DNA of 38,254 nucleotides from Oscillospiraceae bacterium. Lineage in GTDB: Bacteria; Bacillota; Clostridia; Oscillospirales; Ruminococcaceae. Every line of letters starts with the position of its first letter. Positions within the stretch are counted from its first letter, which is position 1. This document shows positions 1 to 30,185 of the stretch, piece after piece. The notes below the pieces were generated by a model. That model was not told where the DNA came from, did not search any database, and saw nothing but the letters and a program-made list of their open reading frames with translations. Made by a program: the position numbers and the translations under genes. Where the stretch lies: NCBI GenBank assembly GCA_022508925.1, contig JAFLUF010000005.1, forward strand, positions 1-38,254. The letters are read 5' to 3'.

Positions 1-54
1 ACCTATGACCCTCTGCTTGTAAGGCAGATGCTCTCCCAGCTGAGCTAAACTTCC
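1..54 (-). tRNA. tRNA-Val (UAC), 5' part, cut by the window edge
   Basis: Read on the minus strand, the sequence starts with a 7-nt acceptor strand (GGAAGTT), then TA, a GCTC D-stem, a D-loop with GGGAGAGC, and the anticodon arm TCTGC-CTTACAA-GCAGA. The central triplet of the 7-nt anticodon loop is TAC, which reads valine codons. The T-arm, 3' acceptor strand and CCA end lie beyond position 1. A good promoter sits about 40 bases upstream. The valine identity rests on the anticodon alone. Confidence 0.9.
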
Positions 55-18934: not shown

Positions 18935-19054
18935 TAAAGCCCCCGAAGGCGAGCCGCCTTTGGCAATCCGTCTCACTTGTGAAACGTTTGCCAAAGGCTG
19001 TTGCTCGATTCGTGCGATACTTCTGTATCGCACCTTCCTTAAACGGAGGCTTTA
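18935..19054. repeat. Structured repeat element, copy 1
   Basis: This 120-bp element fills much of the 323-base gap between the NVDTG promoter and the NPDTG gene. The outer arms TAAAGCC-C-CCG and CGG-A-GGCTTTA close it. Inside, plus strand, are AAGGCG-AGC-CGCCTT, or alternatively GCCTTTGGCA...TGCCAAAGGC, the latter capped by TCAC-TT-GTGA, and then a perfect 9-bp hairpin GTGCGATAC-TTCT-GTATCGCAC. A diverged copy with compensatory changes lies at 29509-29617. On the minus strand it begins about 63 bases after the NPDTG stop codon, so it may lie in that gene's 3' UTR. The remaining flanks, AT-rich, show nothing else. Confidence 0.8.
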
Positions 19055-21785: not shown

Positions 21786-21787
21786 AA

Positions 21788-21817
21788 TGCGTAATTCGTA
21801 ATGCGTAATTCGTAATT
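21788..21817. repeat. Heptamer array TAATTCG/TAATGCG, left arm
   Basis: Four 7-bp units alternating GTAATTC and GTAATGC directly after the VWA gene. A matching array in the opposite orientation lies at 21872-21905, so the two flank the terminator as a long imperfect inverted repeat. Confidence 0.8.
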
Positions 21818-21831
21818 ATTATTGATGATAA

Positions 21832-21859
21832 AACGCGCTCGGTATTTTCCGAGCGCGTT
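21832..21859 (-). terminator. Terminator after pcrA
   Basis: The 11-bp stem AACGCGCTCGG/CCGAGCGCGTT is followed on the minus strand by TTTTATC, so it serves pcrA. The plus strand lacks a good U-tract, but the hairpin may also stop the VWA transcript. Confidence 0.75.
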
Positions 21860-21871
21860 CTGTCATTATAG

Positions 21872-21905
21872 CGATTACGAATTACGCATTAAGCATTACG
21901 AATTA
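21872..21905. repeat. Heptamer array, right arm, overlapping the pcrA stop codon
   Basis: Units ATTACGA, ATTACGC, ATTAAGC, ATTACGA on the plus strand, the inverse of the left arm. The last codons of pcrA (Asn-Ser-stop) are read from within the array, so the repeat has supplied the current end of the gene. Confidence 0.8.
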
Positions 21906-29508: not shown

Positions 29509-29617
29509 CTCCCCAAAGGCGAGCCGCCTTTGGCAGTCCGTCCCGCACGCGGAACTTCGCCAAAGACAGATGCTCGAATGATATGCTACTTCTGTATAGC
29601 ACGCTCTTTAAGTATGC
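29509..29617. repeat. Structured repeat element, copy 2, in the 5' UTR of the activase-like gene
   Basis: It matches copy 1 over about 100 bp with the same order of parts: AAAGGCG-AGC-CGCCTTT, GGCAGTCCGT, the stem CCGC-AC-GCGG (TCAC-TT-GTGA in copy 1), GCCAAAG, the spacer ATGCTCGA, and a hairpin with the same TTCT loop and GTATAGCAC arm. It lies between the predicted transcription start (near 29637) and the TTG start, and the GGGGAG ribosome binding site forms its downstream edge on the minus strand. CCAAAGGCG can pair either with the upstream CTTTGGC or with the downstream CGCCTTTGG, so two exclusive folds are possible. Confidence 0.8.
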
Positions 29618-30016: not shown

Positions 30017-30050
30017 AATGCGTAATGCTTAATTCGTAATTCATAATTAT
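30017..30050. repeat. Heptamer array TAATGCG/TAATTCG, second locus, left arm
   Basis: Units AATGCGT, AATGCTT, AATTCGT, AATTCAT and AATTAT on the plus strand, between khpA and the rpsP-side terminator. An array in opposite orientation lies at 30147-30185. Confidence 0.8.
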
Positions 30051-30058
30051 TTTTGAAC

Positions 30059-30092
30059 AAAAAACGCAATTACACGGCGGCTGTGTGTAATT
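30059..30092 (-). terminator. Terminator-like hairpin between rpsP and khpA
   Basis: On the minus strand AATTACAC and GTGTAATT form a stem around a 9-nt loop, followed by GCG and six Ts. It would stop part of the rpsP transcript before khpA. A second pairing, GCGG...GTGTG with CACAC...CCGC (about 30077-30114), overlaps it and could compete. Confidence 0.55.
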
Positions 30093-30146
30093 CTAAACCG
30101 TCCGACCACACAATCCGCTTTGCAAAAACGTAATGATTATAAATTT

Positions 30147-30185
30147 AATTACGCATTACGCATTACGAATTACGAATTACGAATT
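30147..30185. repeat. Heptamer array, second locus, right arm
   Basis: Five to six units (ATTACGC twice, then ATTACGA three times) running to within 10 bases of the rpsP stop codon. It is inverted relative to the 30017-30050 array, as at the pcrA locus. Confidence 0.8.

What the first reader, a model, noticed from the sequence alone, without database searches (positions are those of the whole stretch)
18935..19054. Two-copy structured element with compensatory changes (copy 1)
Copies at 18935-19054 and 29509-29617 share the same ordered parts. The TCAC/GTGA stem of copy 1 is CCGC/GCGG in copy 2: two pairs changed on both sides (T-A to C-G, A-T to G-C). The identical TTCT loop sits on a hairpin in both copies, though copy 2 has lost two bases from one arm. 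Selection on structure, as RNA or as a mobile palindromic element, explains this better than plain repeat decay. I do not know it as a named RNA family.
Basis: partly seen in the sequence, partly recalled or inferred. Interest (0 to 1): 0.72.

Follow-up and report, generated by a model that had tools for sequence, protein, structure and literature searches.

The report
Mobile DNA repeat inside terminator hairpins
The two look-alike structures belong to a family of about forty 95-base mobile DNA repeats in this Oscillospiraceae genome, and about half of the single copies sit in the tip (loop) of a transcription-terminator hairpin, an insertion target I could not find described for any small repeat.

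Summary
The two copies belong to a dispersed family of ~94-96 nt units: 42 model matches in this 2.18 Mb genome, 40 in a sister species, 12 of 43 congeners positive, and related units in another genus. The claimed compensatory changes are confirmed: the same two pairs co-vary across the family, and the left-end (P2) and apical (P5) hairpins co-vary beyond shuffled and slid controls. No Rfam family matches. It is the host's own intrinsic terminator, different at each locus, with the element in its loop. Of 91 solo copies, 48 have flanks that pair above the 95th percentile of a mismatched-flank null (about 4.5 expected). At seven loci one of two sister species has the empty terminator. Orientation relative to the terminator is not fixed, and units also form head-to-tail tandems. 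So this is most likely a miniature non-autonomous mobile palindromic element. It works like a REPIN or MITE, but no Y1/RAYT, IS1182-type or IS110 transposase explains it in the copy-rich genomes, and no longer element shares its ends. The mobilising enzyme is unknown. A host RNA function remains possible but is not required.

The parts
18946..19042 (-). Copy 1 of the mobile unit (TT-AAGG...CGCCTT read on the - strand)
   Evidence: CM score 104.2 bits; 100% BLAST match and ~40 relatives in the genome
18935..18945 (.). One arm of the host terminator stem around copy 1 (TAAAGCCCCCG on +)
   Evidence: Inverted repeat I2; stem differs at other loci
19044..19054 (.). Other arm of the host terminator stem around copy 1 (CGGAGGCTTTA on +)
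   Evidence: Inverted repeat I2
19012..19033 (-). Left-end hairpin P2 of copy 1 (GTGCGATAC-AGAA-GTATCGCAC)
   Evidence: Inverted repeat I4; covariation
18970..18985 (-).
   Evidence: Two-sided changes at the same pairs across the family
18956..18998 (-). P4 arms of copy 1 (GCCTTTGGCAA / TTGCCAAAGGC) around P5
   Evidence: Inverted repeat I1; 5' arm drifts in the family
18946..18960 (-). Right-end hairpin of copy 1 (AAGGCG-GCT-CGCCTT), alternative to P1/P3/P4
   Evidence: Inverted repeat I5; kept in diverged relatives with other letters
29516..29611 (-). Copy 2 of the mobile unit, in a 5' leader, absent from sister genome G011
   Evidence: CM 79 bits; G011 comparison
29540..29555 (-).
29581..29602 (-). 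Left-end hairpin P2 of copy 2, slipped pairing with a larger loop
29644..29673 (-). Probable promoter (TTGACT-17-TACAAT) upstream of copy 2, conserved in G011
   Evidence: Read directly from the sequence; conserved in L278

Best explanation
It is a miniature (~94-96 nt) non-autonomous mobile DNA element with two conserved hairpin-bearing ends. The left end is AAGGAG plus a hairpin with an AGAA loop; the right end is AAGGCG-GCT-CGCCTT. It inserts, in either orientation, at a TT dinucleotide in the apex loop of host intrinsic-terminator hairpins. Shown: dispersed copies, conserved ends, empty versus filled terminators, loop location, both orientations, head-to-tail tandem units, covarying hairpins. 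Inferred: an enzyme acting in trans recognises the folded ends and the extruded target hairpin (single strand or cruciform). Also inferred: because the element folds compactly, the host terminator can still close around it, which would make insertions nearly neutral and allow spread.
For: 42 matches in own genome, 40 in G011, 20 in G013, 13 in G012, 10 in G028; 12 of 43 congeners by BLAST. Empty sites: three G000 loci empty in G011 (L004, L007, L012) and four G011 loci empty in G000 (L182 at 96% flank identity, L169 at 90%, L168, L153); window copy 2 is absent from G011. Outer stems: 48/91 solo copies above the 95th and 38/91 above the 99th percentile of mismatched flanks; the outer stem closes around the element in the MFE fold of 48/49 (this strand) and 47/49 (other strand). 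93/109 copies adjoin a gene 3' end, median 31 nt. No preference for the T-tract side (20 versus 22). Tandem junction CGCC-TT-AAGG. Covariation score and two-sided cells above all 500 shuffles on both alignments. Left-end and right-end matches pair ~95 nt apart, apart from a few truncated copies.
Against: No mobilising enzyme was identified: Y1, DUF772/IS1182-type and IS110 are absent from G000, G012, G013 and G028; G011's single IS200 has unrelated ends. Movement was never observed directly. About half of solo copies, window copy 2 among them, show no clear flanking terminator stem. All genomes are drafts, so an autonomous copy may be missing from the assemblies. Some empty/filled pairs differ in several loop bases, so the exact junction (TT duplicated, or part of the element) is not settled.
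Confidence: 0.8

Rival explanations
1. A REPIN in the strict sense: an inverted pair of REP sequences moved in trans by a RAYT (Y1 HUH) transposase.
For: Same anatomy as REPINs described in PMC3116915: conserved left and right ends, variable spacer with compensatory changes, extragenic location, tandem clusters, a stable long fold and an alternative multi-hairpin fold. No target duplication beyond TT.
Against: No Y1_Tnp (PF01797) match in G000, G012, G013, G003, G016 or G028, while the E. coli control rings. The one Y1 gene in G011 has different ends. The two ends are not inverted copies of one REP.
Confidence: 0.12
2. A functional structured RNA (3' UTR or leader element) kept by selection for a host role, for example terminator modulation, mRNA stabilisation or protein binding.
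For: Real covariation in P2 and P5, with G-U far commoner than A-C in P2 (199 versus 51), so one strand is preferred. The hairpin plan recurs with different P2 and P5 sequence in another genus (L139). Copy 2 lies in a 5' leader next to the ribosome-binding site.
Against: Species-specific presence at compared loci. Both orientations relative to genes: codirectional gaps 36 sense to 19 antisense, partly orthologous pairs. Opposite orientations at the same terminator in sister species (L008/L078, L173/L242). P4 prefers A-C over G-U, the reverse of P2. No Rfam match. A strand-specific ssDNA intermediate would give the same G-U bias.
Confidence: 0.13
3. Stem-loop-replacing transposition of the IS1272 (IS1182 family) kind.
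For: IS1272 targets inverted repeats of unrelated sequence, without target duplication (PMC5678879).
Against: IS1272 removes the target stem-loop; here the stem is kept and only the loop is interrupted. DUF772 transposases are absent from the copy-rich genomes.
Confidence: 0.04
4. Plain repeat decay with no selection on structure.
For: P3 and the foot of P4 show few or no two-sided changes and up to 31 of 51 unpaired cells in one pair.
Against: Covariation exceeds every shuffle and the slid versions. Related units in another genus keep the fold with different P2 and P5 sequence.
Confidence: 0.05

Closest known systems
REPINs / REP-RAYT systems (PMC3116915; PMC2817692)
   Same: Miniature extragenic palindromic mobile units with conserved ends, variable middle with compensatory changes, and tandem clusters.
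   Different: No RAYT/Y1 gene in most carriers, ends are not two inverted REPs, and the target is the loop of intrinsic terminators.
MITEs of bacteria (reviewed in PMC10969869), with pneumococcal BOX, RUP and SPRITE (PMC3049150)
   Same: Short non-autonomous intergenic repeats that can fold in transcripts; SPRITE is called terminator-like.
   Different: Here the terminator belongs to the host locus and surrounds the element. Terminal inverted repeats are short and imperfect, and no autonomous parent with matching ends was found.
IS1272 stem-loop-replacing transposition (PMC5678879)
   Same: Target chosen by palindrome shape and not by sequence.
   Different: IS1272 deletes the target stem-loop and carries a transposase gene; here the stem remains and there is no gene.
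IS1397, ISKpn1, IS621, ISPpu9/10 insertion into REP palindromes (PMC1525189)
   Same: Insertion inside extragenic palindromes.
   Different: Those recognise REP sequences; here the terminator stems have unrelated sequences, and the element is ~95 nt without a gene.

Membership tests
REPIN / REP-RAYT | Two conserved ends around a variable, hairpin-forming spacer | tested here: met
   Left and right ends conserved, middle hairpin variable with compensation.
REPIN / REP-RAYT | RAYT (Y1 HUH, PF01797) gene in the genome, flanked by the same repeats | tested here: not met
   No PF01797 match in G000, G012, G013, G003, G016 or G028; control E. coli positive; G011 Y1 ends unrelated. Draft genomes limit this.
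MITE (non-autonomous derivative of a DDE insertion sequence) | Terminal inverted repeats shared with a longer autonomous element | tested here: not met
   End-pattern scans of four genomes found only ~95-nt pairs of ends and a few truncated copies.
MITE (non-autonomous derivative of a DDE insertion sequence) | Target-site duplication | tested here: inconclusive
   At most a TT dinucleotide, which can equally be read as part of the element.
IS1272-type stem-loop replacement | Target stem-loop lost on insertion | tested here: not met
   Stem arms retained on both sides.
IS110-type element | DEDD transposase (PF01548) in carriers | tested here: not met
   Absent from G000, G011, G012, G013 and G028; one weak partial match in G016.
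Known Rfam RNA family | Score above a family's gathering threshold | tested here: not met
Cis-regulatory or small RNA | Transcription and an effect on gene expression | not testable with these tools
   No transcriptome data were available.

The most novel reading that the evidence does not exclude
An undescribed class of miniature mobile element whose target is the shape of intrinsic terminators (the apex loop of a terminator hairpin), moved by an enzyme outside the usual hairpin-handling families (Y1, IS110, IS1182), and whose own fold is kept because it lets the host terminator go on working.
Probability: 0.3. Interest if true: 0.75.

Novelty: new variant of a known kind. Interest (0 to 1): 0.55.

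Why it matters
If right, terminators are a safe harbour for a small mobile DNA: insertion in the loop leaves the stem and T-tract intact, so the element can spread without breaking genes. It gives a clean system, with empty and filled sister loci, for asking what recognises hairpin loops in DNA and how much extra structure an intrinsic terminator tolerates. It also warns that covariation in repeated palindromes can look like a regulatory RNA.

Tried and rejected
Rfam on the window, on copy 1 at a permissive threshold and on eight related loci: nothing relevant. Viral contigs, phage and plasmid collections: no match. IS200/IS605 (Y1) as mover: absent from most carriers, ends unlike. IS1182-type and IS110 transposases: absent from copy-rich genomes. 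Autonomous parent with the same ends: none in four genomes. A transposase beside the tandem arrays: open frames next to eight array or repeat loci were read by eye only and none looked like one. Strict orientation with respect to transcription or terminator polarity: not found. A TTAA target duplication: fits L169 only; the general pattern is TT. RNAalifold on a gapped alignment gave a weak consensus, so the structure was set by hand and counted. Paper searches for elements that insert into terminator loops found no match.

Full report
WHAT WAS CLAIMED. A two-copy structured element at 18935-19054 and 29509-29617, with compensatory stem changes, either an RNA or a mobile palindromic element.

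CHECK. Both copies are there and align over ~100 nt, while their flanks do not. The exchange of TCAC/GTGA for CCGC/GCGG is real. On the - strand copy 1 folds at -65.6 kcal/mol (z -9.3) against -57.7 on + (z -7.7); copy 2 folds at -42.5 (z -3.5) against -27.6 (z -0.8). Rfam release 15 has no relevant match (related loci).

EXTENT. A BLAST search of the own genome gave 58 rows; about 40 distinct copies remain after opposite-strand self-matches of the palindrome are set aside. A covariance model gives 42 matches in G000, 40 in G011, 20 in G013, 13 in G012 and 10 in G028, and a few in other congeners (12 of 43 genomes positive by BLAST). Across 199 genomes of the family only G000 and two genomes of other genera rose above threshold, the second marginally (stricter filters, few candidates scored per genome). 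Phages, plasmids and viral contigs have none.

ANATOMY. Read on the strand that folds better, a consensus-like unit is TT-AAGGAGCGTGCGATATAGAAGTATCGCACG-ATTCGAGC-AACAACCTTTGACAACGTTCCACGTGTGGAACGTATTGCCAAAGGCGGCTCGCCTT. It has a left-end hairpin (P2, AGAA loop), an apical hairpin (P5), a long pairing between the CCTTTGRCAA and TTGCCAAAGG arms (P4), a short CGAGC/GCTCG pairing (P3) and AAGG/CCTT ends (P1). The 3' end can instead form its own hairpin AAGGCG-GCT-CGCCTT. Divergent relatives keep both ends and the length but change the middle hairpin, and some have AAGGC-ATT-GCCTT at the right end. L139 and L137 in another genus keep the layout with different P2 and P5 letters; L139 also has a terminator stem around the unit.

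COVARIATION. On 51 copies: 12 pairs with two-sided change, 47 such cells against 24.4 +/- 3.7 in shuffles (0/500), covariation score 0.177 against 0.153 (0/500) and 0.04-0.08 for slid partners. On the wider model-fitted set of 109 distinct rows: 179 cells against 71, score 0.218 against 0.152 (0/500). The signal is in P2 and P5; P3 shows almost none and the foot of P4 is often unpaired. In P2, G-U outnumbers A-C 199 to 51 (one pair is mostly U-G), so this strand is the favoured one; in P4 and P5 together it is 129 to 179, because the 5' arm of P4 has drifted. Shuffles ignore relatedness and the second alignment leans towards the model, so this is good but not final evidence.

THE OUTER STEM IS THE HOST'S TERMINATOR. 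At other loci the same position holds an unrelated stem, often with an A-tract before and a T-tract after: AACGCGCTCGGA/TCCGAGCGCGTT, AAACCGTGCCTGCCG/CGGCAGGCACGGTTT, AAAAACCGCTGTCG/CGACAGCGGTTTTT. For 91 solo copies the flank-to-flank pairing score reaches the 95th percentile of mismatched flanks in 48 cases and the 99th in 38, where about 4.5 and 1 are expected. The element lies at the apex, usually with 0-3 unpaired bases on the left and 0-5 on the right. In 48 of 49 loci with a clear stem the minimum-energy fold still closes the stem around the element, and in 47 of 49 on the opposite strand. 93 of 109 copies adjoin a gene's 3' end, median 31 nt from the stop codon by a simple coding-score gene caller.

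EMPTY SITES. Joined-flank queries found uninterrupted terminators. G000 loci L004, L007 and L012 are empty in G011, and L007 is also empty in G012, G030, G033, G034, G037 and G040. G011 loci L182 (96% flank identity), L169 (90%), L168 and L153 are empty in G000. Clearest case, L169: CCTCCT-TT-AATAAGGAGG empty, CCTCCT-TT-[AAGG...CGCC]-TT-AATAAGGAGG filled. L012 fits the same rule. The extra TT may be a two-base duplication or part of the element. At L153, L168 and L007 the loop bases differ more. Window copy 1 is also filled in G011 (L032). Window copy 2 is absent from G011, where the promoter and start region are otherwise conserved. Presence/absence is most simply insertion; loss was not excluded locus by locus with a tree.

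ORIENTATION AND TANDEMS. Codirectional gaps have 36 sense and 19 antisense copies, convergent 22, divergent 9 (some are orthologous pairs, so the sense bias is weak). T-tract strength shows no side preference (20 versus 22). At two terminators the sister species carry the element in opposite orientations (L008/L078; L173/L242). Tandem arrays of two to four units meet as CGCC-TT-AAGG.

MOVER. Left-end and right-end matches in four genomes belong to ~95-nt units, apart from a few truncated or contig-end copies. Y1 transposases are missing from G000, G012, G013, G003, G016 and G028, and the one in G011 has unrelated flanks. DUF772 and IS110 transposases are missing from the copy-rich genomes too. 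Draft assemblies lose insertion sequences, so this is a caution, not a proof of a new enzyme.

INTERPRETATION. The anatomy and behaviour are those of a REPIN-like miniature mobile DNA (PMC3116915), but the RAYT requirement was tested and not met. IS1272 also aims at stem-loops but replaces them (PMC5678879). REP-targeting insertion sequences recognise REP palindromes (PMC1525189). Insertion into the loop of sequence-unrelated terminators was not found in the papers searched. Host RNA function cannot be excluded, for copy 2 in particular: it lies about 20 nt upstream of the start codon of a BadF/HgdC-like gene (named from general knowledge of the sequence; not scanned here) and next to its ribosome-binding site, downstream of a TTGACT-17-TACAAT promoter.

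LIMITS.

Noticed in passing
window 21786-21905 and 30017-30185: A second dispersed palindromic repeat of AATTACGAATTACG / AATTCGTAATGCGTAATTC units, with inverted copies about 84-96% complementary.
   Followed up: no
flank of L169 (query 1378-1453): A repeat around AAAAACCTTTCTGTAGAAAGGTTTTTCCCC has dozens of matches in G000, G011 and G012; it looks like a repeated terminator-like unit.
   Followed up: no
flank of L174 (query 2102-2180): Another dispersed repeat, around CGACCATTCGCATTTGACGCGAATGATATC...CATACTAAAGGAACC, in G000, G011 and G012.
   Followed up: no
L008 versus L078; L173 versus L242: At the same terminator, sister species carry the element in opposite orientations; at L008/L078 the stem sequence differs as well.
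   Followed up: partly
L242 (G000:C82:42499-42916, same contig as the window): A decayed or chimeric copy with rearranged ends inside a longer stem.
   Followed up: no
window 1-54: A tRNA gene cut by the window edge.
   Followed up: no
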